Part shown: in pieces, positions 29,972-58,073 of the stretch
How positions within the stretch are numbered: position 1 is the first letter of the stretch
How the letters are laid out: each line of letters begins with the position of its first letter
From: Peronospora farinosa
Taxonomy: Eukaryota > Oomycota > Peronosporomycetes > Peronosporales > Peronosporaceae
Length of the DNA stretch: 64,000 nucleotides
Reading direction: 5' to 3'
NCBI GenBank assembly: GCA_947646735.1
Contig: CANTFK010000994.1
Span: forward strand, 124,001-188,000
Notes under the pieces: model-generated
Databases searched by the model: none
Told to the model about the DNA's origin: nothing
Seen by the model: only the letters and a program-made list of their open reading frames with translations
Program-made: the position numbers and the translations under genes

Positions 29972-30540
29972 TGTAACAGACCCAACGTTACATACCCGTT
30001 AAGTATGCGATACTTAACGGGTAGGTCTAAAAAAATCAGTAAGTACTTCAGACCTGTTGCTTGGGGAAGACACATCAGGTGACATACCCTTGCGTATTTA
30101 AGTAATATTCACATTGAGGGGGATGACGCCCAGCTGGGACTAGGAAATATCAAATGACGTCAGTCGTTATGTCATGAAGGGAGCTTTAATGTACACTCTG
30201 GGATGCGCATCTACAGAGATGGCCTCCATCATTACATATTATTGATCAGTAATATAAAATATATTTAATCTATATCTACTCGATATAAGTCAGTCGTAAT
30301 TTTTTGACTGACGCTCACTGCGCACAAGAAGCTGAATAAGCTTCTGCGTAGTTTGTGTGAAGCTATTGCTTAGAAGTTTGTTGCGTGGTTCACTTCGTCG
30401 ACGGCAACCGTTGGTGTGACCGCTTTGACCAAGCACCTCATCATCGCGCACGATGCTTCGACGTTTTAATTGCTTCCTTTCGTGCTTAGAGGTGTGTGTC
30501 AGCGTAGCACGTAGCAGATTTTTTGAAGTGCCCGTCTACA
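29972..30540 (+). repeat. 5' LTR of element B
   Basis: It starts TGTAAC and ends CCCGTCTACA, next to a primer-binding stretch (30541-30565) that resembles the one of element A (GCAGCACTTAGTAGTCC against GTAGCACTCGTAGTCC). Internal blocks match the B 3' LTR pieces: CACATTGAGGGGGATGAC, and CACTGCGCACAAGAAGCT with ATAAGCTTCTGCGT. A 14-bp-arm palindrome (arm TACCCGTTAAGTAT) lies at 29993-30023. The LTR is about 450 bp shorter than the reassembled 3' LTR, so an internal deletion is likely. Confidence 0.65.
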
Positions 30541-30600
30541 CTCAGTAGCACTCGTAGTCCTTCCCACGACTTGTCTCCCCGAGCGTGCGTGTGAGCGTGG

Positions 30601-31368
30601 ATGGTCCTCAACGTGGATTGGGGCGAATTTTCTCACCTCTTCCAACATCATAGGGAGTTGGCACAGCATATGGCGCAGGGACGTGGTGAACAAGCCCTGG
30701 CTAACCTCTTGCATCATCCTCCTAAGAAACATGTTGCTCATTTAGAGAAATTTGAGGCGTTTGTGCTCGGACAGCGTAGAAACGCGTCCGAGGTAAACAG
30801 TCAAGCCACCGCTGAGTCCATCAATAAGACTCAGGATGAGCTTAGGCTTGAGCAGGCACGGAATGAGGCGCTCAACAGAACTGTTGAGACGCTCTCTACC
30901 CGACCTGCTCAACCGAGGCCCATTCGGATGGACCCTCCGAAGTTCGATGGAACTAGCCCTCACACGATTGTTCACTGGCTATTAGCAGTGGAGCAATGTG
31001 GAGTGGTGCAGCTCATCGAAGACGACACCAGAATGGTATCGTATGCCATGTACAACTTGCGTGGCAAAGCGTCAGAGTGGGCATACTCTGCGCTGATGGC
31101 TAATGCTGATGCATTTACATCATGGGCGATCTTTAAGGCAAAGATTCGCGCCATGTATCAGCCGCCTAGCAACGAGGTTTTGCTTATGGCGCGCTTCTTT
31201 GGAGCACGACAGGCGAAACGCTCTCTGCAAGAATTTGTGCAGGAGATGCGTTCGCTGTCGGCGTCCATTTATGGGGATCCTATACCGGAACACATTAAGG
31301 TGCCTACGTTCATGAATGGAATACGGCATGTTCGATCACGTCAGGCCCGTTTTAAAAAGGTAACATAA
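30601..31368 (+). CDS. Gag of element B (capsid part)
   Basis: 255 codons from ATG 30601 to an in-frame TAA at 31366-31368. A coiled-coil N-terminus (residues about 65-100) precedes the retrotransposon gag domain: PPKFDGTSPHTIVHWLLAVEQ, then LRGKASEWAYSALMAN, FKAKIRAMYQPPSNE and RSLQEFVQEMRSLSASI. After the TAA the same frame resumes with TMEEAIDIAMVELQSYNSA, so the stop is probably a mutation rather than the natural end. Confidence 0.85.
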   Translation: MVLNVDWGEFSHLFQHHRELAQHMAQGRGEQALANLLHHPPKKHVAHLEKFEAFVLGQRRNASEVNSQATAESINKTQDELRLEQARNEALNRTVETLSTRPAQPRPIRMDPPKFDGTSPHTIVHWLLAVEQCGVVQLIEDDTRMVSYAMYNLRGKASEWAYSALMANADAFTSWAIFKAKIRAMYQPPSNEVLLMARFFGARQAKRSLQEFVQEMRSLSASIYGDPIPEHIKVPTFMNGIRHVRSRQARFKKVT

Positions 31369-32115
31369 ACAATGGAAGAGGCAATTGATATTGCCATGGT
31401 TGAATTGCAATCCTACAACAGCGCCTCGGCGACAGGTTATTTATAAGCCGTCAGCCGAGAGGTCGGATGCCACTCCAATGGAGTTATGCAATGCAGAAGT
31501 GGTCTGCTACATGTGTGGCAAGCGCGGCCATATGATGGCTACGCTGCTATGCCAAACTTGCTACTGGTGCTAAGGCATTCAGAAAAAAGTCTCCCAACCC
31601 GAAGCGAGGTGCGAAAAACCAGCTTGCACGACGCACGGATTCAGCACCTGCCAAAGATGGGTCGTAAAATGTGGGAGCGCAGTGGGGGAGGGATTTCTAC
31701 TGTCCCGGACTCTGAAGCTACCCCTAAGTTCAGAGTGATCGAACAAATGGGTAGCATAGTCCCTGAGGTTCCGAATGGTCGGACCTCAACCCTTTTGGTC
31801 TATAGCGCTCGAGTACGAGGCTATAACCAAGTGTTGACCGTTCTCGTTCATTCAGGTGCATCACAGAAGTTTGTGAAACTCGCGGCTCTGACAAAGAGTC
31901 CGGCAAGTTATGAGTCGCTTTGCAAGGATGCAAGCGAAAAGAGGCGGGCGTTTGATTAGCGAATGGCGCGCTCGTAAAATCGGAGGGAGTTCAAGTTATA
32001 CTCGCCTTCAGTTGAAGTGACTTCTCTTGTAAAGAGACGCTCACAGTGCTAGGTATGGAGAGTCCGTATGACCTCATCCTAGGCATGCCTTGGTTGGCTA
32101 AACACTAACCATGGA
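31369..32115 (+). pseudogene. Element B nucleocapsid and protease remnant
   Basis: Broken frames in the order expected after gag. A zinc knuckle CYMCGKRGHM at about 31508-31540 lacks its final His/Cys spacing. A retropepsin core follows in which the catalytic motif reads LVHSGASQKF (His codon CAT at 31849-31851 where Asp is required). The segment YDLILGMPWLAKH (32070-32108) is followed by a stop codon. Several frame changes separate them, so no functional product is possible. Confidence 0.75.
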
Positions 32116-32314
32116 TAGACTGGCGTACACGCACAGTCGCTAACTCTACGCAAGACACCGGAAAGGATGTGCTCTTGCGATAAGCTTATATGGCTTATGC
32201 TGTGTCCAACACAGTCGAGGGTGCGATGACGTTATGTCAATCGGCACTAGGTACTACCCAGCTCGTTGAGCCTGGTGTAGTCGGAAGTGCCCTAACAGGA
32301 AGTTAGATGACACT

Positions 32315-32630
32315 TGTAACGGGCTGAGGACCCGTTACCGTCTTACACTAAAAGGGCGTTGAGGAAGCGCTCTTAATTAACTCATAAATATAACTGTTTT
32401 AATTTTGCTTTGTTTTAATTCGCAGTAAGTGCGAATATGTTCCCTAGCTCATGGGAACCACTCAATATGGAAGTCAATTTATTGTTGGCTAATTATTGGG
32501 TCTGGCACCCCAATAATGAACCAATAATAAAATGACGCGCAGTATCCGCTAATCGGATACTGCCTTATGCCTACTTATGTAATTATGTATTAATCCTATA
32601 ACTACTTATGTAATAGGTTGCCCCATTACA
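32315..32630 (-). repeat. 3' LTR of element A
   Basis: 316 bp, TGTAACGGGC..CCCATTACA as read on the plus strand. It differs from 39405-39723 at roughly 15 positions, including a T-rich indel area near 32400. The left end folds on itself (GTAACGGG/CCCGTTAC). Confidence 0.9.
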
Positions 32631-32646
32631 TCACCCCCCCCTCTTT
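32631..32646 (-). other. Polypurine tract of element A
   Basis: On the minus strand the bases just before the 3' LTR read AAAGAGGGGGGGG then TGA, a purine run abutting TGTAAT of the LTR. This is the expected plus-strand primer site and confirms the minus orientation of the element. Confidence 0.8.
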
Positions 32647-32834
32647 ATGTTGCGCTTACCTCAACGTAAGCGCGAATCGCAGAAAGTTTCTTCTCGACTA
32701 AGGGCGTAACTCCGAACCTGCTCAGTTAGACGTAACTGAGCAGCATGGACCCTAGGCGTCCACGAAACAATGTCTCTGACAATTAGAACTGGGAACACCA
32801 AGCGACAATACGTAGATAGCAGGCGCCGCAGGTC

Positions 32835-34064
32835 ATGGATGGGGACTTGAAACCGTGGCGTTTGTATGGTCTTGAAGGTGCTGTCGAATTCGAGCCACTG
32901 GAGGTCATGAAGGACCTTTTCACGCGATACCGTACAGTGAGAGGCAAGGCGACGAACAACGCATATACCGACGATGCGTTGCAGAGGTCTTGGTGTGCCT
33001 TCATCAGGCGCTGGAACGCGAGCCGACGTGAAGGAACGTCCTTCACGTCCTGGCTATACGGTCGCGAGGGAACGCGTGATAGACACGCTATTGGCGACCT
33101 GCGCCGGCGCATCTGTCGTATGACTTGTGGCGAGTTTCACCTTTGTTACGTCCACATTCGTGAGGGATGTCCAGCGTGCAACGTGGGAAGATCGCGACCG
33201 GTTCGGCAGGAATGGGACGACTTGGTGTGTGCGCGAGGCATGCCCGATCATATTCGTCCATATATTGCCCGTTATGAGAGAATCCTTTCGGAGCTCCAGG
33301 TTTCCGAGCTACGGCGAGTGAGAGCGCGTCCTTACGATCGCCGACGGCATTCACGTAGCCGAGGTCGTCAACCGTATCATCCATATGCTCCCGAGCCTCG
33401 TAATAGGTCTTGGTCGCGATCACCGTCTTTCTACGGGACTCGTAGTCCTCGACCACGTCCGGGACATCTTGGAACAGCGTACTCGATGGCTCCCATGTAT
33501 CGTCCGCCGGGGAATATCCCAACCAGCGAACCCTGTAATGTTTCTCGACACGCTTCTTCATGGGCGCCGAGTTATTACTCGGCGCCTGAGGCTTGTGATC
33601 CTCGTGATCGACAATTCGGTCGACAATCCAGCGTCGCGCATCCGATGCATCTACTAAGGAAGGAGGAGCGTCACGATGGAAGACCTCTGGCGATGAGCGC
33701 CGATTCTCGCAAATGGGCGCCTGTACAGTCGAATGATGAGCTGCGCCTACTCCGCGCTGAAGCCGAGGAATCGAAGGATGCCCTATTTGATGCTCGCGAG
33801 ATGGCTGAGAGAGCTCAAGATCGTGCGGATGCTGCGACTGAGGCTGCTGAGCGGACTCGACGTGAGCAGCTGGTATTGGTTGAGCGCCTTCGTCAACTTG
33901 AGACGACTGCGTTCAGAGGACCCCAGCAGATCGAGTCTGCACGCGTTCGGTCAGGACTTGGTCCCAGTCGTCGTCAACGTCGTCGTCAAGGGATGTCGGA
34001 TTTCGAGCCGGCACAGAAGAGCGGGGAAGATTCGAAGGGAGATCCGCCGGCAGGTAAGCCTTGA
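32835..34064 (+). CDS. Antisense ORF of element A (409 aa)
   Basis: A single uninterrupted frame of 409 codons on the strand opposite to gag-pol. It starts 204 bp inside the 3' LTR and reads inward. The N-terminal third is Trp/Arg-rich (RSWCAFIRRWNASRREGTSF) with a small Cys/His cluster (CRMTCGEFHLCYVH, CPAC). The middle is Arg/Ser/Tyr-rich (RRRHSRSRGRQ, NRSWSRSPSFYG), as in RNA-binding or nuclear proteins. Residues about 300-355 form a clean coiled coil (LRLLRAEAEESKDALFDARE). The tail is basic (SRRQRRRQG). It overlaps the chromodomain frame (33088-33561) and the integrase end (33913-34064) on the other strand. In 33562-33912 the minus strand has stops, so there only the plus strand is open. 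Expression is unproven. Confidence 0.6.
   Translation: MDGDLKPWRLYGLEGAVEFEPLEVMKDLFTRYRTVRGKATNNAYTDDALQRSWCAFIRRWNASRREGTSFTSWLYGREGTRDRHAIGDLRRRICRMTCGEFHLCYVHIREGCPACNVGRSRPVRQEWDDLVCARGMPDHIRPYIARYERILSELQVSELRRVRARPYDRRRHSRSRGRQPYHPYAPEPRNRSWSRSPSFYGTRSPRPRPGHLGTAYSMAPMYRPPGNIPTSEPCNVSRHASSWAPSYYSAPEACDPRDRQFGRQSSVAHPMHLLRKEERHDGRPLAMSADSRKWAPVQSNDELRLLRAEAEESKDALFDAREMAERAQDRADAATEAAERTRREQLVLVERLRQLETTAFRGPQQIESARVRSGLGPSRRQRRRQGMSDFEPAQKSGEDSKGDPPAGKP
33088..33561 (-). pseudogene. Element A chromodomain segment
   Basis: The minus-strand frame contains YRVRWLGYSPADDTWEP, the core of a chromodomain as found at the C-terminus of chromovirus integrases, where it targets insertion to marked chromatin. 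An open tail of about 110 residues follows the domain. It is separated from the integrase frame (ending 33913) by about 350 bp with stops, so it is no longer in one polyprotein. Confidence 0.75.
33563..33586. repeat. 10-bp-stem palindrome at the chromodomain start
   Basis: Arms GGCGCCGAGT / ACTCGGCGCC with a 4-nt TATT loop, directly upstream (minus strand) of the chromodomain ATG and inside the antisense ORF. It is perfect, although surrounded by decayed sequence. Confidence 0.7.
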
Positions 34065-35388
34065 GGCGCCCAACGTAGAACGTCGAGTGCAAACGCATAT
34101 ATGTAGGTATGTCTAGCGTGTAAGCGTCACCATGCACCTTAACAACCCGAAATGGGCCAATATATCTTAGCGCTAACTTATTAGCGCCCAAATTTGTCAC
34201 TGAGGTGTTCGGTAATCCACTTGTTGATAACAATACTCTGCCACCTTCTCGAAATGTCAACACATTATTTTGACCTCTTCTGTCTGTATTCTCCTTTTGC
34301 TTATCGACTGCCACTTCTAATGCATCACGCACAAAACGCGTGATTCCTTTTCGTAATAGTAAAAATTCGGTTACTGCAGCCGAACTTACAGGCGACGTAT
34401 GTTCTTTTGGAGCAAAATTGGCAACGGAAGACGCGATGGAAAGCATCGCGTCAGGAGTCGATATGCCGTTGGCCACGAAATTACCAGTATTAGGTGCATC
34501 GGCAGCAACCTCATTTGCATCGTAATCACTCATCAATAGTTTCGGCGAAATTCCATCCGTAGATACTCCCCCACCAAGCTTGGAAACAGGGTGTTCTGAA
34601 GCTGAGAGAGCAAGCAGCGCCGGAACGCGAGGATGCCTCGCGTTGTTAACGAAAAAGGGGGTCAACCCGGTTGACGCATGGACAGCATTGTTGATTTCAA
34701 ACTCTGCAAGTGGAAGAAACGAACTCTATGACGAGAACGAGGTTGCATAACTGCGCAAGACATCTTCGAGCACTCTGTTCACACGCTCCGTTTGCCCATT
34801 CGTCTCTGGATGGGCCGCCGTAGACATAAGCAACCGCGTGCCTAATAGCTGGAATAATTCGGCCCAGAAAGCCGAAGTGAAACGCGGATCACGGTCCGAA
34901 ACAATAGATTCTGGCAAGCTGTGATGCCTAAAGATAAGATCAATGAAGATCTTCGCTGTCGTCTCCGCCGTAATGTTGGCGAAGATCGGAGCAAAATGCA
35001 CCATTTTGCTGAATCGATCCACTAGAACCAATACGCCCGTGCGTTTCTGTTCATCCGGTGGAAGGCCAAAGATAAAATCCATGCTGACCGAGCGCCAGGC
35101 TTCCGTAGCAATCGGAAGCGGACGCAATGGGGCTTGTGAAGACGGCGCAGGCTTCACACGCTGACAGGTTTCACTGGAGCGCACCCATTTCTGGATGTAT
35201 TTATACATTCGCGGCCAGAAAAATACGCGAGAATTAGCCACAAACGTCTTCTCGCGACCTAGGTGTCCGCCAGCTGGGATGTCGTGAAATTCATGAACCA
35301 ATTGGGCTCGAAGGTCGTCATCAGCAGGGATGACGACACGCAGGGAATCAAAGACGTCCATCGTGTACGTCAGCAACGAGACCGCCAA
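33913..35388 (-). pseudogene. Element A integrase (one in-frame stop)
   Basis: The frame runs from 35388 to 33913 with one TAG at 34728-34726. The zinc domain has HEFHDIPAGGHLGREKT, then SSETCQRVK, where the first Cys of the usual C-x-x-C is Ser. The catalytic core shows D (SMDFIFGLP), D (SDRDPRFTS) and E (ETNGQTERVNRVLED). The C-terminal part contains LRYIGPFRVVKVHGDAYTLD, the usual GPY/F module. It is out of frame with the upstream RT/RNase H segment, so the polyprotein is broken at about 35350-35390. Confidence 0.88.
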
Positions 35389-37303
35389 GCGCGTAACGCT
35401 TGATGTTGTCGCGTGTTAATTTTGTCAACTTCGCGGTTAAAATCTCGCTCGGGTCCCTGAGATAGTTGATGATCACTGCATAGAAGGAATCATTTGCGTA
35501 GGATTCAGCGATCTGAGTTCGGATCAAAAGCACGGGGGTCGAAATTATCGCATTAAGTCCCAGTTCAATACAACACACACAGATATCTTCGTCTTCATCA
35601 ACATACTCCGTTTGATGACCCATATCACGCCGAGGATCGTAATCAGGAAGACGGGAAAGCGCGTCAGCGAGAATGTTATTCTTGTCAGGCTTGTAATGCA
35701 CCACAAAATTATACTCGGCAAAAAATGACAACCACCGTTCCATACGCTGGGACAAGTGAGGACTCTTGACGGCGGTACGCAATGATGCGTGATCTGTGTA
35801 TATAGAAAACATCTTTTCGCCGAGCAAATATACTCTAAACTTGATTAGCGTGTAACGCATAGCCAAAAGTTCCTTGTCGTGTACCGGATAATTTTTCTCG
35901 GCAGGTTTCATCTGTCGTGATTGAAATCTCACGACGCGCTCTCGACCCTCGTCATCAAATTGCATGAGGGCACATCCTATAGCGAAATTGCTCGCGTCAC
36001 ATACGAAGTGGAATGGCTTAGAGTCGTCAGGTAACATCAGCACCGGTGCCTCGGACAAGCTCTTTTTTACGGAGTCGAAAAAAGATTGATGTTCTGCCGT
36101 CCATAACCATACTGCATCTTTCTTGAGCAAAGTCGATAATGGCTGAATTAGCTCAGCATAGTTCGTTGTATACTTATGCAAGTAATTCGCCAGACCGAGC
36201 CATTGACTTAATTCAGTTTGGTTCCTGGGCGTTGGCCAGGAACAGATCGATGAGATCTTCTCAGGATCAGCGCGGACACCTTCCTTGCTGACGTAGCGAC
36301 CGAGTACTGGAATCTCGGGAGCACAGAGGACACATCTCTTCAAATTCGCATACAATTTATTCTCGCGCATAACTTGAAACACCTGCTTCAAGTATCAAAG
36401 GTGTACATCCGTAGCGCTGAGCTTTTGCTCAGCGAGGCTGTGAGCAAAAATGTCGTCAAAGTAGCTCGGTGCAAAGTCGCGAAGTGGGCGAAGTACTTGT
36501 GTCATCATCCGATTGAACGTAGCTGGAGCATTCTTAAGACCTTGTGGCATGACTAACCACTCCCAAAGCATACCTCTTGGGGTGCTGACCGCAGTGAACG
36601 GAATGTCCCTGTCCCTCATGAGGATCTGATAGAAACCATCTGTCAGACCTTTGGCGCTGTAGATCTCGCTCCCGGACATGGCATTCAATACCATGTCTTT
36701 TCGAGGGATAGGCGTTTGAGCCGGGATAGTGGCTTCATTTAGCTTGTTGAAGGCATGCACAAGGCGCCAACCGCCGGTGGCTTTCTTCACACAGAAAGTC
36801 GGGCTCGAATGTGGCGAGATACTCTCGCGGACATGGCCAGCCTTGCGGCGACCCTCGAAAAATTCATCAATAGCGATGACTTGGTCGCGCGGTAACGGCC
36901 ACTGCCTTGTCACGCAGTATTTCGATCCTGGTACGAGATCTATCTCGTGCCGCACACCACGATCCGCCGGAATCTCAGCTAGAATTTTTTTCGGAAAAAT
37001 ATCGGCGTACTCACGGGCGATATCGTATACAGGGTTGCCCGAAGCACGAAGAGTATCCCAAGACTGTGCCGCGAAGCGTTCTTTGCGCGCTATCTTAGGC
37101 TCGGCGATCTTCGGGCAAGTATCCAGAACCTCTTCACTGGCTGCTTCGGTGGCTGAAACGATGCACACTTTCTCGATGTCGCCGGCCTTGAGGTCATGAA
37201 GGAAGTCTTTCCATAAAAGGTCTGGCAGAGATTTTATCTCTGCAGCAGTGCACGGTGGACTTGCTACCTCAATGTAGCGGCCATGCTGTGGGGATCTCTC
37301 CAC
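35348..37303 (-). pseudogene. Element A reverse transcriptase and RNase H
   Basis: One frame with a single TGA at 36397-36395 (between VHL and YLKQVFQ). RT: IDLVPGSKYCVTRQWPLP, TFCVKKATGGWRLVHAFNKLN, PQGLKNAPATFNRMM and YFDDIFAHS (motif C). Motif A reads YSAKGLTDGFYQ, where the family has an Asp just before the Leu; here it is Gly. RNase H: FHFVCDASNFAIGCALMQ, VHDKELLAMRYTLIKFRVYL, TDHASLRTAV. With motif A lost and an internal stop, the enzyme cannot be active as encoded. Confidence 0.9.
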
Positions 37304-37368
37304 ATATTCAAGCGCGCATACGGTTCCGTCACTACGGAATTAAATGCATCAGCTTTTTTACGTAAATT

Positions 37369-37806
37369 TCATCGTCTCGGTGATCGCCGTGCTCGTTTCT
37401 GGCGTGTTCTCTTGCGTCTTGAGCCCCTGCTCGAGACTGGCACGTCGCTATCACAAGAGGATGATGTGCCCCCTTCTAGACGTGGGGGCTCTTTCTCCAC
37501 CACTTCGGTCTCATGCGAATCCATAGTCCGCCCATTCTCGTCAATAAAAAGCGGGAGCTCGTCTTCGACCGCTTCACTTGTTTGCGGGAGCCCCTGCTCG
37601 ACCGCCTCGTTGAAAATCGGAAAATCCTGTTCGACCGATGTTTGTGGGTGCGGGAACCGCTTTTCGACCGCCTCGTTGTGTGGCTCCGTCAGTGTAACGG
37701 AACATACTGCGCACAGATGGCCATCGCTCTCTCTGTGTTGACTACTAGTCGTGGTGAGTTCGTTCACGATCCTGACGTGAGGCCAATCGGATGAAGCGAC
37801 CAACAA
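37369..37806 (-). pseudogene. Element A linker between protease and RT, with internal repeats
   Basis: An open frame with about four imperfect 13-residue repeats (NEAVEKRFPHPQ, NEAVEQGLPQTS, SEAVEDELPLF and a diverged one), followed by an acidic stretch and an Arg/Lys-rich end (RRKRTRQKRARRSPRR). The repeats correspond to roughly 39-nt units at 37552-37680. It is out of frame with both neighbours. No known domain. Confidence 0.5.
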
Positions 37807-37924
37807 GTTAACACTTCACTGACGTCATAACCGCTTCGTCGTTTGACGGACCGAGATAGCCAATCTATCTTCGGCTGATACCGTGACAGCCACGGTATCC
37901 CAAGTATGCAATCAAATGCATAGT

Positions 37925-38352
37925 TCATCTCTTACACCAAAAATTCGTCGTTGCCTTGGAAACCGTCGCATGTCGCACAAACGTATCATCGACACGAATA
38001 TTCAAAGTGTACGGTAAAACCACTTTTTTACGCGGGACACGTTTTGGTTGTCCATCGGCAAGTTTGACAACGATGTCACCTGGACCTTCTCGAACCGTGA
38101 CAGTCGACGGGAGAAGGGACAAACAGGATGCACGAAAGAAGTTGTTGGAAGCGCCAGAATCCAACAACGCTCGAAGTGGTCGCTTCACTCCAGCGACGAT
38201 GAGACTGATAATAATCAGTCTTGAACCATTGCGCATGGTGGTGGCATTGAAGTGGGTATGAATCACTTTGGGGATAGGAGCCCGAGCTGCCACCTGAGTA
38301 CTCGGAGCTCCATTTCTGCCAGTAGGGCGCCCCACGCCTACTGGAACCGCTC
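37925..38352 (-). CDS. Element A aspartic protease (pol start)
   Basis: After a -1 shift at the gag end, this frame reads [15 protein letters not shown] and contains the retropepsin motif [16 protein letters not shown] with the catalytic Asp intact. It also has [10 protein letters not shown] and a beta-rich remainder, stopping at 37925. The stop precedes the expected linker, so the frame is probably broken here. Confidence 0.75.
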
Positions 38353-39378
38353 TTTTTTTGGCAGGACCAACGACGATACAGCGTCTCCTCGTGAGACAGC
38401 TGTGTTCATAGTCACTGGTGCAGGTGCACGACAGACAGCCGCACGATGGCCTGTTTTACCACAGCGAAAACACTTCATCGCATTAGTATTGCGATTGTCG
38501 GGGCTTAATGATTTGCCGCGACCACGAGAGGACTCAATTGCATCAATTTCCATTGGCTCTGGGCCAGACGTCCGGGGATGTTGTGTTGCTGCGTGCAGGT
38601 ACGACGACGCGACAGTGTAATCCTCACGAAGCGCGAGGGCAAATGCCTCCTCGAGGGACTTTGGCTCAGCACGTGTGAGGCAGTAACGCGTCATGCCCTC
38701 TTGCATTCCAAAAATAAAGACATGGACTTGTGAAGCCATGTCAATTGGCTGCGTGGTAATACACGAAGCAAGATGACGTGTCTTCTGCACGTAGTCACGC
38801 ATCGACAGCTTGCCCTGTCGGAGTGAGAAGGAATCTGCACGCAAGCGAGATTCATCTTGAGGAGTCTCGAAAGCCAGTCGTAAGTCACACTGGATATCGT
38901 CCAGCGTAGGAAACGCCGACTCATCTACGACGAGCTTTCCGAGAGCCCATTCCTTGGCTTTGCCAGCAAGACGAGACAATAGGAAATTGACTTTGGCCGT
39001 CGGAGCAATAATTAATCTTGATGCTATTGCAATATCCACTTCGCGAAACCAGCGATTGAGGGGGAGACGATCCGGACCATCACCGGAGTACGTTGACGTC
39101 TCCATCTTGATAGCATCATGGTGCGAAGTGCGCGAGGGAGTCAATGCTCGCGGATTTGCTTCGGCAAGCTCGCGCACCATAAAGTCTTGGATGGCGGCAC
39201 GTTGATCATCGGACGTCGCTGTACTCAGCAGCGACATCACAATAGTTTCGCCAGACACCGCCGCGAGGCGATGTAGTGCCCGCCACTTCACCGAGGTGGG
39301 ATGTGGAAAATCAGAGTGCTCCAGCGAGACCGCTGGAGCCACCGAAGACTCGCCCATGTTCATCTCGAATCTGGTCAT
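38338..39378 (-). CDS. Gag of element A
   Basis: 346 aa, intact from ATG 39378 to TAG 38338-38340. The capsid-type gag domain includes [50 protein letters not shown] and [25 protein letters not shown] zinc knuckle [14 protein letters not shown] lies at about 302-315. The start codon is 26 bp inside the 5' LTR boundary. It ends at the slippery site that leads into pol. Confidence 0.9.
38353..38359 (-). promoter_or_regulatory. Candidate -1 ribosomal frameshift site (A7) at gag/pol
   Basis: On the minus strand gag reads CCA AAA AAA GAG in frame, that is a heptamer A-AAA-AAA four codons before the gag stop. A -1 slip opens exactly the protease frame ([12 protein letters not shown]). This matches the canonical N-NNW-WWH slippery pattern. 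A downstream stimulatory structure was not folded. Confidence 0.65.
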
Positions 39379-39384
39379 TGGAAG

Positions 39385-39402: not shown

Positions 39403-39404
39403 GG

Positions 39405-44777: not shown

Positions 44778-44818
44778 CTTTTTGCTTTTGATCTTTTACA
44801 AAAATGTATAAATAGTCT

Positions 44819-48723: not shown

Positions 48724-48884
48724 GACCGTGTATCCCCGGAGTATTGTGATGCTCTCGAACATGTAACTTGACCCATTTGTAAATGTATAACAAATATCGC
48801 CTCCTTCTTGCATTATCTTGGCCTTCCCAAATGAAAATTATCCCCACTACTCCTCATGACTCTACATTTCCTCGAATTGGTTTC

Positions 48885-49590: not shown

Positions 49591-50380
49591 TCAACCCTGT
49601 GCCGTATTCAGCGCGAAAGTGAGCCTTTCTGCATAGGCATTCCAGTCTTTCTGACCCACCTCTGACACATAGATTTGTATGGACCGTGTGATAGTCTGTA
49701 CCTTTCTCTCTGCTGTGCCGTTGACCTGTGGTCGATACGGTATAGTAGCTCGCTGTTTCTGTACAATCGTGCAGTTGAAGGCGCGAAAGAAATCTGACAT
49801 GAAACTGGGTTCTTTGTCGTGCCGGATCGCCTCACTGGCCCCACACCGACGAAACACGCACTTTTCGTATCCTTCTAAAACGGTTTGGGCTGACCTAGAG
49901 GAGCTGGCCTTGGCAATAACATATCTTGTAAACAGATTCACCCAAATCAACAGCTCCGGATTACCCTTAAATGACTTAAGTAAATATGGGATGTGATCCA
50001 TCGCGATAACTTGGAGCGGGTAGGTAGCTTGAATATCTCCTGAGGTCCTCCCTCGCAAGGTGGGCCCACCTTTGCCAGTTTCACAGTCCACGCAAGTGCC
50101 AACATAGCGCTGAACACTCCGGAATAAGCCTTTCCTATGGAAATGTTCCGGATCCGTTGGTATGTACGGTCAATTCCCTGGTGTCCCCCTTCTAGACTAG
50201 TATGGTAGTGGTGGAGAAAGTCTTGTTGTAGACTTTCAGGTATAACTAGCCGAATTAACCTATCACGGTCCCCGTCGGTTATTACTTGGTAATTGCAGTA
50301 CAAAATAAGTCCTTCATCACCCAAAGCGTAGTTCATCTCAATCTTTCCACACGTAGATGCCACCTCTGCTGATGAACTAC
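49591..50380 (-). pseudogene. Element C integrase
   Basis: Zinc domain across a frameshift: HHYHTSLEGGHQGIDRTYQR (50180-50240), then RYVGTCVDCETGKGG. The core in the frame ending at 49591 has D (VIAMDHIPYL), D (IRHDKEPSFMSDFF) and E (VNGTAERKVQTITRSIQ), so the DDE triad is present. Joined to the chromodomain region through about 400 bp of decayed sequence. Confidence 0.85.
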
Positions 50381-50599
50381 TCCAATTATCCCGTAGATAT
50401 ACCTTTAAATCACGTATCCACATCTCTTCATCTTGGGCTGCTGCAATTCGCTCGATCCTTACCCGTTGCACTACTTCCTCCTGCAAGACTTCCGTCGGCA
50501 TTCTGGCTAGGGACCGAGACGTCGTAACAGCTGTAACTCGCAGTGCAGAGTTTTGGTCCTTGGGTACTAAAATCTCAGGTAGACGATTAATTGCTTCGA

Positions 50600-51045
50600 G
50601 GTCCTTGAACTCTTCTTCCGGTACCCTGTTGCTGGTGCATGGCCGCGTTAGCAAGTCGGTCTGCACTTTGATTCCATTCGCGCTTCATGTGTAGAAACTT
50701 ATGAACAGGCCAGAACCTGAGTTTTTCCAGGGCCTTCGATCGTCGTGCTGCCAGGCCTTGCGCCTTACACTCGATTTCTCCTCGCATCTGTCGAACGACC
50801 AGGTTAGAATCTCCACATAACACCAAACACCTACGCTCTAAATTCTCCACTAGAAGGAAGCATAACAATAGGCCCTCATACTCTGCCTCATTTACTGTTG
50901 CTTCAATAAATTATCGGGAAGCAGCGCCGACCACAGTTTATCCTGGGAGTTGCCACACCATAGCACTGCAGGCCCCTCCTCCACGCTTAACTCGTGCAGA
51001 CCCATCAAAACTGAACACATAGAGGCTTTGCTCAGGCTCAACCGT
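50600..51045 (-). pseudogene. Second (extra) RNase H domain of element C
   Basis: After a frameshift near 51050 the minus strand reads LYVFSFDGSARVKRGGGACS, two stops, then VNEAEYEGLLLCFLLVE, CLVLCGDSNLVVRQMRGEI and KREWNQSADRLANAAMHQQ. All four catalytic acidic positions of an RNase HI (D of DGSAR, E of NEAE, D of GDSN, D of SADR) are present. This lies between the normal Gypsy RNase H and integrase, the layout of dual-RNase H elements. Confidence 0.82.
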
Positions 51046-51099
51046 AGGGGGAACCACCGTGATAGTTTGGCGCGGGTGTTTTCCCTCCTAGGGGCAATC

Positions 51100-51419
51100 G
51101 AGGACAAGATGGAGTCCACGTTTTCGCGAGGAGTTATGCTGGCTGCTAATGTCCCCAGTATTTCATCCTCGCCCCGCTTACACTTGACCACTTCTAACGT
51201 CCATTGATAAAGGAGTGCAGCCCAATTTACAAGGCGGCCTTGGAGACCTGGTGAACGGACCAACCTTGCTAACGTGGAGTGTCGAGTTAAGATCTTGATT
51301 GGACGTGTAACCAGCAATGTATAGTAGAGGTACAATATCCGCAATAATGCTAGCACCTCCTTGTCCACCAAGCCATTATTAATCTCCTTAGGCTTCAATG
51401 TCCGACTCGTGATAGTCAC
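51100..51419 (-). pseudogene. Element C Gypsy-type RNase H
   Basis: SRTLKPKEINNGLVDKEVLA, LYLYYTLLVTRPIKILTRHS, LQGRLVNWAALLYQWTLEVV and EDEILGTLAASITP form the ordinary RNase H-like connection domain after RT. Confidence 0.85.
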
Positions 51420-51549
51420 TGGTTATATATACACCTTCGTACTCCTGTACAAGAGACACCGAGATGGCCCACTCACCAGCATAGACGATAATGCCAGGTT
51501 CCCGGTCTGGATCGAAATGGTGGAGGATTGGGGCAGTGAAGATCTTATT

Positions 51550-52450
51550 CTATAACATAGCAAATGCCACCTGCACCCGGGCCCATCGGCCCTCCTCCTG
51601 GCCATCTTCCTGTATGTCCCCAGTCCTACTTATCCGGCGTCGTAATACGTGATAATCCACTTCCCTTTGTTCGTACGTTATGGGCGCATAAATGGCGTAG
51701 TCTTCTAAGAACCGACTATAGTAGTTGAGACTTCCGATAAACTGCTGCATAGCTTTTAGGGTGGTGGGCAACGGTAAATCCACCAAGGATTGGAGTTACT
51801 TAGGGTGGGCCTCCAACCCTTCCGCCGATACTTGGTGGCCGAGGTAATCAAAAGGCAATCTACCTTCGACAGCCCCATGAGCTCTTGACCGCGCTGATTG
51901 ATAAGTTCCCCTTGTCACACACATCCAAAAGTCGTTCCACTTTTACGCATAAGTCATCCCATGACTCCGAGGTCACCAAATTGTCGTCGATATAGGATTT
52001 ACGTCCTAATATAGACTTCTTGAGATCCACTTCGGGATGGCCTTTTTCGAACAGGTCCTCTTGCTTGTCAGAGCTGGGCTATGAGGAAATCGTGAATTCC
52101 ATATAAAGCATTATTAACAGCCGCTGATAGATCTGGGGCGCGTTATGTATTCCAAACGGCATTCCTTTCCACTAGAACGACCCAAACGGAGTCACAAACG
52201 CTGAAATCAAACGATCCCTAGCAGTCATACTAACTACCCAAAAACCACCGGCCATAACCAGCGAGCAATATCATAGGGCTTTATTTAAATCTTCCAACAT
52301 TCGCTAACGAGAGGAATAAAAATCACCACGAGATGTGTCATCTCGTTCACCATCCGGTAATAGATACACAACCTTATATCCACTCCAATCTTCTTGACGA
52401 TGATTACAATTGGGCTGTCTCATGGGGAGGTAGAATGCTGGATAATCTTA
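51550..52450 (-). pseudogene. Element C reverse transcriptase remnant
   Basis: Motif C SYIDDNLVTSES at 51966-51998 (minus), then DDLCVKVERLLDVCDKGNLS, YLGHQVSAEGLEAHPK and LPLPTTLKAMQQFIGSLNYY. Upstream motifs are present in broken frames (GMPFGIHN-like at about 52150). At least five stops or shifts. Confidence 0.8.
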
Positions 52451-53689
52451 GACTACAACAGGCCCTTGATTAGGTCCGACAGCTTCTCCCTAAACTGAGG
52501 GGCCACTTTCCGTACACGTTGGGCGATAGGCCGTGCATTTCCCACATCGATGTCGCACACCGCTCCTTGGGCTGCCGGTGGTAACGCGTTGCCTTTTCAC
52601 ATCAACAGATGCCGTTTCTGCCAAATGATCTTGCGGAGACGGCCCACTTGCTCCTTTGAAGTTACACCAGGGTCTGGAATTTGGATATCTTCCATCGTGA
52701 CTTCGTCTAGATGGGGCGACCTCAGGGATAATCGACCAGTTTTTGTCAATATTTTCCGCGCATAGCTCTCCACTCTCGTGGACCCAGACCTAGTCATCGG
52801 CTATATTTGCATCGGCTCCATTATCTTGTTGGCCCTCCGCGATTGGACCTTATCCGTCCCGAACTCGTCAATTCTTGGGGCTTTTTTGCTCAGGCTGACT
52901 TCTGCTGGTTGGTTCCCGTCAAAAGTATCTTCTACTACCTTCGGGTCAGGCAGTGCTGACTAGGGGCTTTTCGGATGAGCACCCCGCACTGTAGTAATCA
53001 CTGAGTCTTGGGACCCTGTTCGTAACAATTTTTTTTCTGGGGTCTTATACTGGGGTTTTTCGATCATGTGACCTCGGTATTCTTCTTCTTAAAAGAAATC
53101 GGAGTCTTCTTCGTCAGTTGTAGCTTGGTAGGATAGGTTTTGTCATTCAGCATACCTCCTGGAACCTACTGACACGAATCTTTGAGATCGAGAAACCCGA
53201 TCCTTAGTTAGCCAAATACCCAGTTTAGTATCTTCATGCAGAATTAAATTATTTTCACTAACATTGGTGACCCTTAAATACTGGTATCGTCTATACCCAT
53301 GTCACCCATCGGTCTCCACGGGTAATCCATAATTTCCAATGGTCGGATACAAACCTCTTCAACGGAACCTCCACGTACTTGTCACTGACAGATTCACATA
53401 CTGGCCCAGTTTCGCTTCCAAAATATATCCGCTATACAAGGTCTTGCGACCTGTCATCTGGATTCGCACTTCATCTAGTAAGTAAATAGTTCTATATGCC
53501 ATGTCCAATCGTATTCCGGCTGGCACTATAACATCTATTCCAAAAGTTCATCCTGACCAACCAGGGAACCAACCCATACATCGAAATAACATACCTGTAT
53601 CCAATTCAGCGTTATCTTCACTTTTTTCCGTCCTTCCGTACTTCTTCAATAGTCACACACTCTTGTCTCTCGCTCGTATCGATTTAGCA
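52451..53689 (-). pseudogene. Decayed RT N-terminal/protease-RT spacer of element C
   Basis: No long frame. A minus-strand segment near 52600-52790 (VESYARKILTKTGRLSLRSP) resembles pre-RT spacer sequence. Otherwise only traces. Confidence 0.45.
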
Positions 53690-53830
53690 GCCTACCTTAC
53701 GAGCAAAGGCGGTATCCAAAATAGATACCTCGGCACCGGAATCGAAGAGCAGATTTGCGCGAGTATTGTTGACCTTCCCAGAGGCCTTGGCCTGCTTAAA
53801 CGACTTTTTTGGGGCATGATGTTTCCAATA
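53690..53830 (-). pseudogene. Element C retropepsin core
   Basis: Minus strand NTRANLLFDSGAEVSILDTA with the catalytic Asp in DSGA at 53731-53743, then FARKVGC and a stop. The flanks are out of frame. Confidence 0.75.
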
Positions 53831-54064
53831 TCCTCTTAACTCTCCCGGCTATAAAACTCCAGTATCATCACCGGCTCTTCCCGTGTATATTCATCGGATA
53901 TACGTGCATTGGCCACAACAGCAACAGAATTAATACAAAAGTCCGATGTATTCCAACCAATTCTTTTTCCTTAACGAAACTCTCCACCGGATGCTTCTCC
54001 ACAAATGCATAAGTGTAGCAATCAGAACGCTCGGCTCGTACCAGATTCAAACCTGGCAATCGTC

Positions 54065-54409
54065 CTAATTTAACATCTTCTCGACAGCCTCCATCAGCTG
54101 CACCGCATGCTTGGTCGGGTTGTACCATTGGCGAATCAAGACGTAGAACGCCTCCATCTGGCACTTCCTCGCGTCGTGGATCTCGTTACAACCAAGACAC
54201 TCAAATAAGAAGCGGTCGGTAAGTTGCCCCTTCTTTCCACATCGTTCGCATACTATTCGCTTCCAACATTTCAGGTCCCCATGCTTCTTGTATTCACAAT
54301 GGGTACACTTCATCAGTGGTACCTCTGGGCCCGGTCTTTGATCGGGGCCGTCCGACGCACATCTTTCCCGATCCGAATTCGGGTCCTGATGGTCTTGAGG
54401 TCCATCCAC
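54065..54409 (-). pseudogene. Element C nucleocapsid-like Cys-rich segment
   Basis: 114 codons with paired Cys motifs CTHCEYKKHGDLKCW, CERCGKKGQ and CLGCNEIHDARKC: a zinc-binding region expected at the end of gag. It ends at TAA 54065-54067, just upstream of the protease. Confidence 0.65.
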
Positions 54410-55490
54410 GTCCCGAGTCCTACCAGTGTGGGCTTTGGTCGCCGCCGCATAACTTCGTCTCAGGCCCCTCTCTTCCTCGGATCCACTGGAGCTATACTCT
54501 TGCTCACCTTCGGTTCCCGATGTAGCTTGGATGGATTGGACAGGACGTCTTGTTTTTTTTTGGTCTACTATCGGTTCGGGGGGAGGTCGGGGCCTTTTGA
54601 CGAAATTTGCTGGAACCGAGCAGGACCTTTCCGTGACGCGCCTTCGCTCGCTAGCGAGCTAGTAGAATTTCTTCCAGGTCATCTGCATCCGAAATTCTGA
54701 GCATGGTGAGCTGGTCCGCCAATTTGCGATCGTCCAAAGTTTTCACGTAATATTCCACATGTTTACATTTCACCTGAGGAAAGCCAGTCTTAATTATCAG
54801 TTTGTCCCTGATCCCTGCCGCATTTAAACGGTACAAATATTCCAGTGGTGACTAGTCGGATCTCTTCCTTGCGTGATAATACTGCCGGGCCACATACACA
54901 CCTAGACCGCAGAAGTGGGCTTGAAATTCTTGCAAAAGTAGCTCCCAGTCGCCACGTACCGTCCGACACATTTGTCGGTACCAATTTGAGCAGGACCCGT
55001 GAGAAGGCCCCCAAAAATAAGACATTTCTCACTGTCTGGTGTCTAGTCTCGGATAAACACAGTCTTCACTTTGGCGCTCCAGCGTCGGGCACGGTCATCA
55101 TCATGGTCCCTTCAGTTGAGTTTCTTTTAGTCCGATGAAGCCGACACTCGTATATGGGGAATAATCAAAATAGTAGTAAGGGCTTCACCTGCTGTAGCCT
55201 TGGCCACAGTCGCTCGCGCCGAGATAGCCGAAAACGTCAAATCATCCGGATCTTATTCTCCATAAGAAGACTCTGCCGACTCCATGTCCACATCCGGAAA
55301 TTCACGTGGTGATCTCAAGTGATCGGCTCTCTGGGAGGGCCCAGGGTAAAGTGGACCTCGGCCCCTCATGATCTGTACCCTGTCCGATGCGTTTCGGGTG
55401 GGTCCCTGCTCTTCCAGGAACTTGGGCATCGCCTTTTCGAAATATGACTGGAGCGCACCAGGGGGCCCTGCCTCAGGCTTTACATTCTGA

Positions 55491-56204
55491 TCAATTTATG
55501 TCCCCAGCAACCCTGGCTCCACTTTGCAACGGTACCCTGATCACATCTTCACGTACTTGTGGCTGGGCCCTCGGGATCGCTGCATCCATCTGTCCTGCTT
55601 CGCGAATCCGTGCTTCGAGCAAGGCTGCACCGGTTGGCCTCAGCTGCACCCGATCTACTGTATCCATTAGGGCCGAGACCGTAGACGAAATGGCCGACTC
55701 ATACTGGGACCTCGGTGATGATTCATCGTGGGAACATGCTGAAGAGCCTAGGCCAGGAACAGCTGCTGTGCCCACATGACGGGGTGCCTCCTTGTAGGGA
55801 ATCTCGCCCACTAACGCCTTGATATGACTTTGCAAGGCTACCAGGGTCTTCTTCAGGGTATCGAGTCCAAAATCAAAGAGGGCCTCAGCAATAAAATTTC
55901 CATCAGCCATCCCGGCTTCAAGAAGCAGGATCATCAAGGCCTTGAGGATCTCCAGGTCTGTCGTTGCGATGAGCAAGGCCGTTATCGGGCCATGTACCTG
56001 GTCTAGTAGCTTGACCTTGAGCGTATTCATTACCGGGTCCTTTCGCAAAAACGTCTCCAACTTACTCTGGTGATATGCTTCTTCCAGGTCCTCTTCCGTC
56101 CAGTCCCTACTAGCCTTACCTTGGGTTTCTCCCGACTCGCCCGTCGTGTCTCCGCCTGTTTGTGCCTTCAACTTGGTCTGCTTCTTTTTCTTGTTCTTGG
56201 GCAC
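55491..56204 (-). CDS. Element C gag-like protein
   Basis: 237 codons from an ATG. A Lys-rich start (PKNKKKKQTKLK) leads to helical, Leu-rich segments (MNTLKVKLLDQVHGPITALL, LEILKALMILLLEAGMADG) and a Glu/Ser/Arg-rich end. The position directly after the leader suggests matrix or capsid function. The capsid domain itself is not clearly recognisable. Confidence 0.55.
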   Translation of the reverse strand: MPKNKKKKQTKLKAQTGGDTTGESGETQGKASRDWTEEDLEEAYHQSKLETFLRKDPVMNTLKVKLLDQVHGPITALLIATTDLEILKALMILLLEAGMADGNFIAEALFDFGLDTLKKTLVALQSHIKALVGEIPYKEAPRHVGTAAVPGLGSSACSHDESSPRSQYESAISSTVSALMDTVDRVQLRPTGAALLEARIREAGQMDAAIPRAQPQVREDVIRVPLQSGARVAGDIN

Positions 56205-56225
56205 CGATTTTTCGTGAGTAGTGGC

Positions 56226-56558
56226 TTAAGAGACTTGTTTCAGGGTCTCTTTTTTGGCTTTCGCTGTCAAACTTGGGGCCTCTAGACCATAATATTTATT
56301 ATGGCCCACGTTGTCTTCTTTAACGAAGACAAAGTAGGGAGGATTTTGTGGTTTTTCTTCACATTCCACCTTAACCTCAATAGCAGAGCTCATCCTCGGG
56401 CTCTGCAGGTCTTCCAATCCTTTTTCCTTATTGATCACTGGCGATATGGGTTCCAGTGTCTTGTTCGTCCCTTGTTCCATCTTGACCGTTTCCTTTTCTT
56501 CTTCGTGGAACTCACGGTGAAATCCCGCGTCTCCCGAAGATCCGGGCACGCGCACCAT
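56226..56558 (-). CDS. Element C leader ORF starting at the primer-binding site
   Basis: Frame starting with an ATG (56558-56556) that overlaps the primer-binding site: MVRVPGSSGDAGF, then acidic and Lys-rich sequence to a TAA at 56226. It is in the same frame as the gag ORF, which starts 22 bp later. It could be the original N-terminus of gag, cut by one stop. Confidence 0.45.
   Translation of the reverse strand: MVRVPGSSGDAGFHREFHEEEKETVKMEQGTNKTLEPISPVINKEKGLEDLQSPRMSSAIEVKVECEEKPQNPPYFVFVKEDNVGHNKYYGLEAPSLTAKAKKETLKQVS
56540..56557 (-). other. Primer-binding site of element C
   Basis: Minus strand TGGTGCGCGTGCCCGGAT, one base inside the 5' LTR. Its complement ends ..GCGCACCA, the form of a mature tRNA 3' end. 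It confirms that the right LTR is the 5' one. The tRNA species was not assigned. Confidence 0.7.
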
Positions 56559-57593
56559 TGTGGTGGAGTGGATTCTCAAACGCCGTGAGAGATCCACAAA
56601 CACACACAGCGCCAGACTGCCGACTTAAAGAGGATAACCTTTCTAGAGATTTATACAGCAAGTGCAAGCAATTAAAGATGGGTACCCCGATACCGTGTCG
56701 CGTCAACCTTGGGTCTCACCTTGTGTACCCGTCTTCTTGACTGGTCTTTCTCCTCGCTAGATGCAGACGACTTATAGACTTGGTCCTTGTATGGAGGGGC
56801 TTGGGGGCTTACGAGTGGATATACTTCGCTCGGACCCGGGGGTTCTTGGGCTCAATCGACTGGGTCGAGAGAAATGCACCTGTGACTATGCACCCCTTTC
56901 GGTATCTAACGGTTTCTTGGTCTTTGGACCCCTTTCTCTTGTTCCCCGTAGGGAAACCGCTTCCTGTAGCGGGTCTTGAATGGGTACGAACCCACAGGCC
57001 AAAATACTTCCTGGGGTTCGTTCGAGCTTGAATCTTACCACACGACTGTCTTCAACGGGGGGGGAGGGCAAAATAATCCTTTATCCGGAACAGGTGGGTA
57101 GATCGAAACAAGTTCGCACTTGAGTCTTGACACCTCAGACCAACTATCCTGAGGTTCAACTTGCGTAGCTTGAGCCGTCTAACACCTACTGACGTCGGGG
57201 GCCAAAGGGTATCCCGCTCGGAAGAGTTGAGGTGACGGAGAAGAGCTTGGAGAGGGGCGCTAAGAGCTGCCACGTGTAATGCAAATCCGAATGTGTTTAT
57301 TTATCTTATACTTTGTATGCATTTTCTTGCCCAACCCTGACCCTTCGCTCTGGATATTGCCACGTGTCGACTCTTGGAGAAAGAACTGACTCCTTAGTAC
57401 CTGTACTTCTTGTAATCTTCGAGGTTCCGTGTGCCATTTTGCATTCTCGGGTATTGGGCCCTTGTACCCTGGATCCTGCTTACCTGGGCCCTAAGGCCTC
57501 AATTGGCTCTGCATTTCTGGGTCCTTATATTCTTAATGGTCGGGGCCTGGTGTGAGGATGTAGATTTGCGAGGCCGTGTTTAAAGTAAATAAA
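56559..57593 (-). repeat. 5' LTR of element C
   Basis: Starts TGTGGTGGAGTGGATTCTC. It is collinear with 45380-46335, with an extra segment at about 56626-56680 and a short insertion (GATCCTGCTTACCTGG) near 57472. The last shared bases are GGCCGTGTT (57572-57580). The true end is uncertain. Confidence 0.8.
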
Positions 57594-58073
57594 GGTACTT
57601 AAGAACTTGATGGTAAAATGTAAAGTGTTTACATATATGTCCTTAGTTCACAAAAAGATACCTCTTAGCCTATCTTTTTGTAAAAGCTTCAGCAATGACG
57701 TCAATCTATGATGCCATTCCGTGACGTCTTACGATGACTCACAAACACGGATACCTTACCGGCATGTGGGTACATCTTGAGGCTTCGTCTTGACAACAGT
57801 GTTGTGGTCACTCCCTCGGGTGAGTGACCGAAATTTTTATTGTTCCCTGTTTCAAATAGAAGTCAGTTGCCCACTGCGCACTAGAAGCTTGATAAGCTTC
57901 TGCGTGACGTAAGTGAGGAACCTCTTAGTTGTTCGTTGCGCGGACCGCTCTAAGCGGCCGGCAACAGTTTGGTTCGGCGTTTAAGTGGCAGACCTAAGGT
58001 ACCTCGTACCCATTTAGGGCTGCCCGTTAAGTATTCGATACTTAACGAACCGTGTAACTTTTAGCCCGTTACA
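57594..58073 (+). repeat. 3' LTR of element B, right piece
   Basis: Begins with GGTAC, the duplicated target, and contains CACTGCGCACTAGAAGCTTG and ATAAGCTTCTGCGT, shared with the 5' LTR of element B. It also carries an inverted repeat (CGTTAAGTAT/ATACTTAACG at 58025-58048) and ends GTGTAACTTTTAGCCCGTTACA, the inverse of the LTR start at 44833. Confidence 0.72.

What the first reader, a model, noticed from the sequence alone, without database searches (positions are those of the whole stretch)
29972..58073. Three different Gypsy elements each carry an antisense gene starting just inside the 3' LTR
In element A (- strand), B (+) and C (-), the space between pol and the 3' LTR has coding-like sequence on the strand opposite to gag-pol. 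Start codons lie 204, 56 and about 160 bp from the 3' LTR and read inward: 32835(+), 44777(-) and 46524(+). Products are not obviously homologous but share a style: basic nuclear-type runs, Ser/Arg or Ser/Lys tracts and coiled coils. Antisense ORFs in this position are known in plant Tat/Ogre-type elements. A conserved equivalent in oomycete elements would be a separate accessory function, possibly driven by an antisense promoter in the 3' LTR.
Basis: partly seen in the sequence, partly recalled or inferred. Interest (0 to 1): 0.87.

Follow-up and report, generated by a model that had tools for sequence, protein, structure and literature searches.

The report
Conserved antisense genes in oomycete retrotransposons
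Three different jumping genes of a downy mildew each carry a real, conserved gene on the strand opposite to their replication genes, and in two of them this gene is written on the back of the part that probably helps the element choose where to land.

Summary
The three antisense frames are real genes, though the window holds damaged copies. A: the 409-aa frame is part of a ~470-aa antisense gene, intact in other copies here, with a diverged sister family in this genome and relatives in Peronospora destructor and four Phytophthora species. B: open 500-537-aa frames in a sister family, 96% identical to a Peronospora effusa protein, with 47-62% relatives in unnamed sources. C: open 699-754-aa frames; divergence from a sister family by codon position (0.365/0.291/0.530, p=2e-18) shows purifying selection. 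The three proteins are unrelated but alike: pI about 10, disordered basic tracts, coiled coils. Corrections: all three are chromodomain elements; in A and B the antisense gene overlaps the pol end that encodes the chromodomain, and in A constraint switches strand along the overlap. In C the proposed ATG is not conserved; a conserved short antisense-strand intron creates the start codon (22 of 26 copies covering it). C has the domains of an oomycete Chronos element. Such antisense ORFs are known in plant Tat elements and fungal Boty; my searches listed none for oomycetes. Promoter and protein function are untested. New variant of a known kind.

The parts
32315..39727 (-). Element A, Gypsy with chromodomain (LTRs 32315-32634 and 39405-39727), inserted into element B
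   Evidence: LTR pair 95% identical; gag/Ty3_capsid 38338-39432, RT 36395-37339, RNaseH 35348-36394, integrase 34726-35415
33433..33630 (-). Element A sense chromodomain at the pol C-terminus, lying opposite the disordered middle of the antisense protein
   Evidence: PF00385 E=1.6e-11, residues 95-160 of window:33088-33912:-
32745..34064 (+). Element A antisense gene (about 470 aa in intact copies; this copy has a stop near its start and an 87-bp in-frame deletion).
   Evidence: tblastn 89% over 468 aa; deletion coordinates; homologs; selection
29971..45090 (+). Element B, old and decayed Gypsy element interrupted by A (gag 30595-31368, RNaseH 41267-41668); LTRs strongly diverged, outer end approximate
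   Evidence: LTR alignment score 81 against a maximum of 53 in 50 shuffles; gag PF03732 3.9e-14 and RNaseH 2.3e-25
43733..43850 (+). Element B chromodomain remnant, opposite the antisense frame
   Evidence: read by eye in the sequence; the sister copy L079 has PF00385 1e-8 opposite its antisense codons about 298-347
43311..44777 (-). Element B antisense gene, decayed; start codon 44777, about 56 bp from the 3' LTR
   Evidence: tblastn with the sister protein, 32-53% in 4 pieces; open 500-537 aa frames in the sister family
45380..57580 (-). Element C with Chronos-type domains (dual RNase H plus chromodomain); 3' LTR 45380 to about 46364, 5' LTR 56559-57580
   Evidence: LTR match 98.5% over 794 bp with flanking pieces; RT_RNaseH 8.5e-9 and RVT_3 7.1e-9; chromodomain 1.5e-9 to 2.4e-9 in 3 of 3 sibling copies scanned
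46411..46481 (.). Conserved noncoding block just inside the C 3' LTR (66 of 71 bases shared between one C copy and one C-sister copy); candidate leader exon or promoter of the antisense gene
   Evidence: counted by eye
46501..46563 (+). Predicted 63-nt intron of the C antisense gene; splicing forms the start codon A|TG
   Evidence: GTAAG...AG in 23 of 26 loci covering it (22 of 63 nt, one of 57), A|TG in 22 of 26; A|TG also in 4 of 4 C-sister loci with a shifted donor (read by eye)
46564..48603 (+). Element C antisense gene (699-754 aa open in long copies; this copy frameshifted)
   Evidence: tblastn 39-74% to L058 in 3 pieces; codon-position test p=2.1e-18
50587..51422 (-). Element C dual RNase H (sense)
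   Evidence: PF17917 and PF13456
49591..50169 (-). Element C integrase core (sense)
   Evidence: PF00665 4.5e-6, under Pfam's own cut-off in this decayed copy

Best explanation
Three lineages of chromodomain Ty3/Gypsy elements in a Peronospora genome each encode an accessory protein on the antisense strand, next to the 3' LTR. Shown: the genes exist, are shared by many copies, have relatives outside this genome (named oomycete species for A and B), and are under protein-level constraint (strong for C; shown for A; for B from protein conservation only). The C gene has a conserved short intron that makes its start codon, which implies an antisense mRNA starting upstream, at or near the 3' LTR. 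Inferred: the antisense mRNA is made from a promoter in or beside the 3' LTR. The products, all about pI 10 with disordered basic tracts and self-associating coiled coils, go to the nucleus and bind the element's chromatin or RNA as oligomers. There they tune expression or integration of sibling copies in trans, much as HTLV-1 HBZ does and maize Grande gene23 may do. In A and B the gene is overprinted on the pol end. In A the antisense protein's disordered stretch lies opposite the folded chromodomain, and its helical and coiled parts lie opposite the loose sense linker and tail; B has the same layout.
For: A: 13 homologs, 37-64% identity over 16-98% of the query. A sister family in the same genome has about two dozen stop-free rows with frames of 460-502 aa. 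Antisense codons 1-208 differ 0.445/0.378/0.642 at positions 1/2/3 (p=5e-6), including codons 1-115 where L002 has no sense frame (p=0.0016). Opposite the chromodomain (codons 241-320) the pattern turns to 0.377/0.657/0.429, the sense wobble (p=0.002). C: 0.365/0.291/0.530, p=2e-18; intron with A|TG; one outside homolog whose predicted Met aligns one residue from the splice-made start. B: 14 homologs, 47-96% identity; sites conserved on one branch tend to be conserved on another in the antisense-only part (OR 3.2, p=3.5e-5 and OR 2.8, p=3e-4). Models: A = helical domain about 40-195, low-confidence, probably disordered 195-353 (opposite the chromodomain), coiled coil 359-419; C = coiled coil 47-226. 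pI 9.8-10.4 for 5 of 5 proteins tested. Long frames are not by chance (0 of 1000 shuffles for window A, L002, L079 and L058).
Against: No RNA, protein or localisation data. No known domain gives a biochemical function (only weak matches, mostly to coiled-coil families). B codon test negative: 0.208/0.252/0.208 between a dead B copy and its live sister, as expected for decay but not supportive. One of three B branch-pair tests was not significant (p=0.46 and 0.26 in its two parts). For A only one of three pair tests reached p<0.05 in the N-terminal part, and none in the middle or C-terminal parts. The population test in A's antisense-only part had just 3 informative sites. A codons 321-468: no codon bias (p=0.29); codons 1-40: no more identity in the antisense than in the pol frame (6/24 against 7/24). 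Three of 26 C loci lack the donor or acceptor (L034, L043, L056), and L043 has a long open frame but a lost acceptor.
Confidence: 0.62

Rival explanations
1. Shadow ORFs: the antisense frames stay open only because the sense strand codes for pol.
For: In A and B much of the frame does lie opposite pol, and both use the phase in which sense position 3 faces antisense position 2 (worked out).
Against: Codon bias is found where no sense pol frame exists (A codons 1-115 of L002; the whole of C); intron signals on the antisense strand in C; antisense protein conserved across species.
Confidence: 0.03
2. The proteins act in the particle or pre-integration complex (a second gag-like or nuclear-import factor) rather than as regulators.
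For: Basic, coiled-coil make-up; PMC7264820 raises nuclear import of the pre-integration complex for plant antisense ORFs.
Against: A and B already encode a gag on the sense strand; no capsid or zinc-knuckle family listed for the antisense proteins (one sub-threshold CCCH-finger row, E=0.66, for A).
Confidence: 0.22
3. The antisense RNA itself is the function (dsRNA or siRNA control of the sense RNA) and the ORF is secondary.
For: In A the antisense frame overlaps sense pol by about 1 kb, in B-sister by about 0.6 kb; PMC3522703 (passages read) reports small RNAs on both strands along P. infestans Gypsy elements.
Against: Protein-level constraint, open frames of 460-798 aa; an RNA-only role needs none of this.
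Confidence: 0.1
4. Captured host genes or relics of a nested insertion.
For: The named hits are annotated as hypothetical or unnamed proteins, and their genomic surroundings could not be read.
Against: Same place and strand in the copies and sister copies read here; no host functional domain; three unrelated proteins in the same slot.
Confidence: 0.05

Closest known systems
Antisense accessory ORFs (aORF-3R) of plant Tat/Retand-type Gypsy elements: maize Grande gene23, rice RIRE2, Silene Retand (PMC7264820, parts 1 and 2 of 3 read; PMC11963269, passages read)
   Same: Antisense gene between pol and the 3' LTR, in most copies of the family, product without clear homologs, nuclear in Grande
   Different: Retand is a non-chromovirus lineage whose antisense ORFs mostly carry a TRP28 domain; here there are chromodomain elements of an oomycete, three unrelated proteins without a TRP28 match, and overlap with pol in A and B
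Boty-like elements of Botrytis with antisense gene brtn (passages of PMC8365987 and the title in its reference list; mention in PMC7264820)
   Same: An antisense extra gene in a non-plant LTR element
   Different: Fungus; sequence comparison with brtn not done
Steamer-like element SLE-1 of the mussel Mytilus chilensis (PMC10974842, passages read)
   Same: LTR element with sense and antisense RNAs, the latter from the 3' LTR, and an antisense ORF
   Different: That ORF has 67 aa; mollusc; no comparison made
Chronos Ty3/Gypsy elements of oomycetes (PMC5348765, passages read)
   Same: Element C: dual RNase H plus chromodomain after integrase, Peronosporales
   Different: The word antisense does not occur in that paper's main text; RT phylogeny not run here
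HTLV-1 HBZ and the APH proteins of related deltaretroviruses (PMC10186651, passages read)
   Same: Antisense gene by the 3' LTR, spliced form, leucine-zipper type product in HBZ
   Different: Retrovirus, no homology seen; LTR promoter and nuclear action reported there, only inferred here

Membership tests
Plant Tat/Retand antisense aORF | Antisense ORF between pol and 3' LTR, shared by the family | tested here: met
   in A and B it also overlaps pol
Plant Tat/Retand antisense aORF | TRP28 (PF04195) domain in the product (97% of Retand clusters, PMC11963269) | tested here: not met
   no PF04195 row at E<=1 for 5 antisense proteins of the A, B and C families
Plant Tat/Retand antisense aORF | Host element is not a chromovirus (no chromodomain) | tested here: not met
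   chromodomain in A, B-sister and C siblings
Chronos (element C) | Dual RNase H: Gypsy RNH plus archaeal/plant-type RNH | tested here: met
   PF17917 8.5e-9 and PF13456 7.1e-9
Chronos (element C) | Chromodomain after integrase | tested here: met
   PF00385 in 3 of 3 sibling copies scanned; not detected in the decayed window piece
Chronos (element C) | Place in the RT phylogeny | not tested
   no tree built; the RT of the window copy is fragmentary
Chromovirus (elements A and B) | C-terminal chromodomain on integrase | tested here: met
   A; B through its sister
Chromovirus (elements A and B) | Place in the RT phylogeny | not tested
   no tree built
HBZ-like antisense regulator (works like) | Transcribed from a promoter in the 3' LTR | not testable with these tools
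   no RNA data held
HBZ-like antisense regulator (works like) | Spliced antisense mRNA | tested here: inconclusive
   conserved intron signals in C, no reads
HBZ-like antisense regulator (works like) | bZIP domain | tested here: not met
   no bZIP Pfam row; other coiled coils are predicted
Boty brtn | Homologous protein | not tested
   brtn sequence not fetched

The most novel reading that the evidence does not exclude
Chromodomain retrotransposons of oomycetes have repeatedly and independently gained an antisense nuclear gene. In two lineages it is overprinted on the chromodomain itself, so one stretch of DNA encodes the targeting domain on one strand and an element-made regulator on the other. 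With plant Tat elements and deltaretroviruses this would make an antisense 3' regulator a recurrent, convergent part of LTR elements.
Probability: 0.35. Interest if true: 0.87.

Novelty: new variant of a known kind. Interest (0 to 1): 0.74.

Why it matters
It extends conserved antisense genes from plant and fungal elements to three lineages of oomycete elements with chromodomains. It gives a clean case of two-strand coding in which, in A, each strand's folded part faces the other's loose part. It shows a start codon apparently made by splicing on the antisense strand. It also makes the open question of what such genes do testable, since three unrelated proteins fill the same slot. Practically, dozens of annotated hypothetical proteins in Phytophthora and Peronospora (about 80 member sequences behind the 13 rows) are probably such element genes.
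Full report
What the window holds. The window is G000:C274:124001-188000 of a 46.85-Mb assembly in 274 contigs. A protein of the B-sister family is 96% identical to one of Peronospora effusa and to part of one of P. farinosa, so the host is probably a Peronospora close to these (inference). Element A (32315-39727, minus) sits inside the old element B (plus), and C (45380-57580, minus) follows. LTR pairs: A 95% and C 98.5% over 794 bp; B strongly diverged, alignment score 81 against a maximum of 53 in 50 shuffles. Sense domains: A gag, RT, RNase H, integrase, SH3 and chromodomain. B gag and RNase H. C integrase, a weak RT piece and two RNase H domains; its chromodomain is seen in 3 of 3 sibling copies scanned, not in the window piece.

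Are the antisense frames real? In A, the window frame (414 codons open) is reached by 0 of 1000 shuffles. Of 30 fetched loci, 6 (L002, L003, L005, L006, L008, L012) keep a 471-codon antisense frame. In the whole-genome protein search 91 of 954 candidates were scored and gave 106 matches, 65-100% identical, many with stops. The window copy lacks 87 bp in frame (from coordinates). The protein search found 13 homologs: P. destructor 59% over 98% of the query; P. fragariae, P. rubi, P. capsici, P. megakarya and one unnamed source 37-64% over 16-91%. Searching the window's genome with the P. capsici protein uncovered a second family of elements, 40-54% identical to it, with about two dozen stop-free rows whose open frames have 460-502 aa (92 of 751 candidates scored).

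B. The 16 fetched copies are decayed, but the antisense piece of one of them (L067, 330 aa) finds a sister family with about 20 stop-free rows whose frames have 500-537 aa (121 of 985 candidates scored). Its protein has 14 homologs, 47-96% identical. The frame in the window runs from 44777 to 43311 on the minus strand in pieces.

C. Of 30 loci, 3 keep frames of 699-742 aa (L043, L044, L058); L043 is in frame only from residue 39 and L044 lacks about 33 residues. The protein search adds C253 with 754 aa, and a sister family with frames of 715-798 aa at 45-59% identity (61 of 703 candidates scored). One outside homolog was found (43% over 31% of the query).

Selection. I aligned DNA without regard to frame and counted differences by antisense codon position. 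C against C-sister (652 codons): 0.365, 0.291, 0.530, p=2.1e-18, with the same order in all three thirds. A against A-sister: codons 1-208 0.445/0.378/0.642, p=4.8e-6; codons 1-115, where L002 has no sense frame, p=0.0016; codons 241-320, opposite the chromodomain, 0.377/0.657/0.429, p=0.002, which is the sense wobble; codons 321-468 no bias, p=0.29. Protein identity tells much the same story: the antisense frame has 38-58% against 13-29% in the pol frame over codons 41-240, then the pol frame has 38-52% against 18-37% antisense over codons 241-360, and over 401-440 it is 30% antisense against 10%. Less clear: over 1-40 it is 6/24 against 7/24; over 361-400 it is 31% against 20%; a third frame that holds stops reaches 33-40% over 41-240 and 44% over 361-400. 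For B no live divergent DNA could be had: L067 against L079 gave 0.208/0.252/0.208, and L086 turned out to be the same family as L079. Protein sites conserved between L079 and P0021 tend to be conserved between P0026 and P0027 (codons 1-290, OR 3.2, p=3.5e-5) and between P0025 and P0027 (OR 2.8, p=3e-4), but not between P0025 and P0026 (p=0.46). The same test in A reached p=0.010, 0.13 and 0.08 in codons 1-202 and nothing further on.

The start of the C gene. The ATG at 46524 is a GTG in most copies. An intron-like stretch GTAAG...AG (window 46501-46563) is kept in 23 of 30 loci, 22 times with 63 nt and once with 57 (one search had missed L042). Of the other 7, 4 have no homologous sequence there (L047, L050, L051, L060) and 3 are damaged at donor or acceptor (L034, L043, L056). 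In 22 of the 26 loci that cover it, intact signals are flanked by A and TG, so splicing would create the start codon. In 4 of 4 C-sister loci the donor is shifted by 4 bases (GTAGGT) and A|TG is kept; this was read by eye. The predicted first residue of the outside homolog aligns one residue from that place. Just upstream, 66 of 71 bases are shared between a C copy (L058) and a C-sister copy (C270) (by eye). This is far more than in the coding part and suggests a leader exon or promoter; its RNA does not fold unusually.

The proteins. hhalign finds no relation among the three families. All five proteins tested have pI 9.8-10.4. Pfam gives only weak matches, mostly to coiled-coil families. The A model has a helical domain at about 40-195, a low-confidence, probably disordered stretch at about 195-353 and a coiled coil at 359-419 (mean pLDDT 57.5). 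The loose part covers codons 263-326, opposite the chromodomain. The C model has a long coiled coil at 47-226 (mean pLDDT 48.1). In B-sister the chromodomain lies opposite antisense codons of about 298-347 and a weak coiled-coil match follows at about 381-431, so A and B have the same layout; no B model was made. In C the two genes meet tail to tail without overlap: in L043 the antisense frame ends at 3866 and the sense frame with integrase and chromodomain ends at 4134.

Mechanism. Shown: conserved antisense genes; constraint on both strands in A; intron signals in C. Inferred: an antisense promoter at the 3' LTR, a nuclear place and an oligomeric DNA-, chromatin- or RNA-binding product that tunes the element in trans. 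The model is HBZ, which is made from spliced and unspliced antisense RNA of the 3' LTR and lowers sense expression (PMC10186651, passages). In plants, Grande gene23 is nuclear and is transcribed from a promoter in its upstream region (PMC7264820, parts 1 and 2 of 3 read).

Novelty. Antisense accessory ORFs are known in plant Tat elements and in Boty of Botrytis (PMC7264820; PMC8365987, passages), and a short one in a mussel element (PMC10974842, passages). Oomycete Chronos elements are known, but the main text of the paper that names them does not hold the word antisense (PMC5348765). My searches for a description in oomycetes (open-access papers only, of which I saw the listed titles and abstract starts, the lists being capped) showed none. 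Plant Tat and oomycete Chronos elements were already called convergent for the extra RNase H (PMC5348765); an antisense gene would be a second shared gain.

Noticed in passing
46411-46481: Noncoding block inside the C 3' LTR border shares 66 of 71 bases between one C and one C-sister copy while the coding part differs by about 40%; function unknown.
   Followed up: partly
21056-21147: A 92-bp stretch 83% identical to the A LTR, perhaps a remnant of a related LTR.
   Followed up: no
50587-51422: Element C has a dual RNase H like plant Tat elements and retroviruses, fitting the oomycete Chronos group.
   Followed up: partly
32315-39727 within 29971-45090: Nested insertion: the younger A (LTRs 95%) lies within the gag-pol region of the much older B.
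   Followed up: partly
G000:C248 and C240: Several RT hits with identical scores in long open frames (many of 1384-1387 aa), which look like a young, clustered retroelement family, perhaps not related to A, B and C.
   Followed up: no
A1 and A2 C-termini: The last coiled coils of the A and B antisense proteins share a weak pattern (P=0.016) at the same place opposite the sense linker; could be a trace of common origin or chance.
   Followed up: partly
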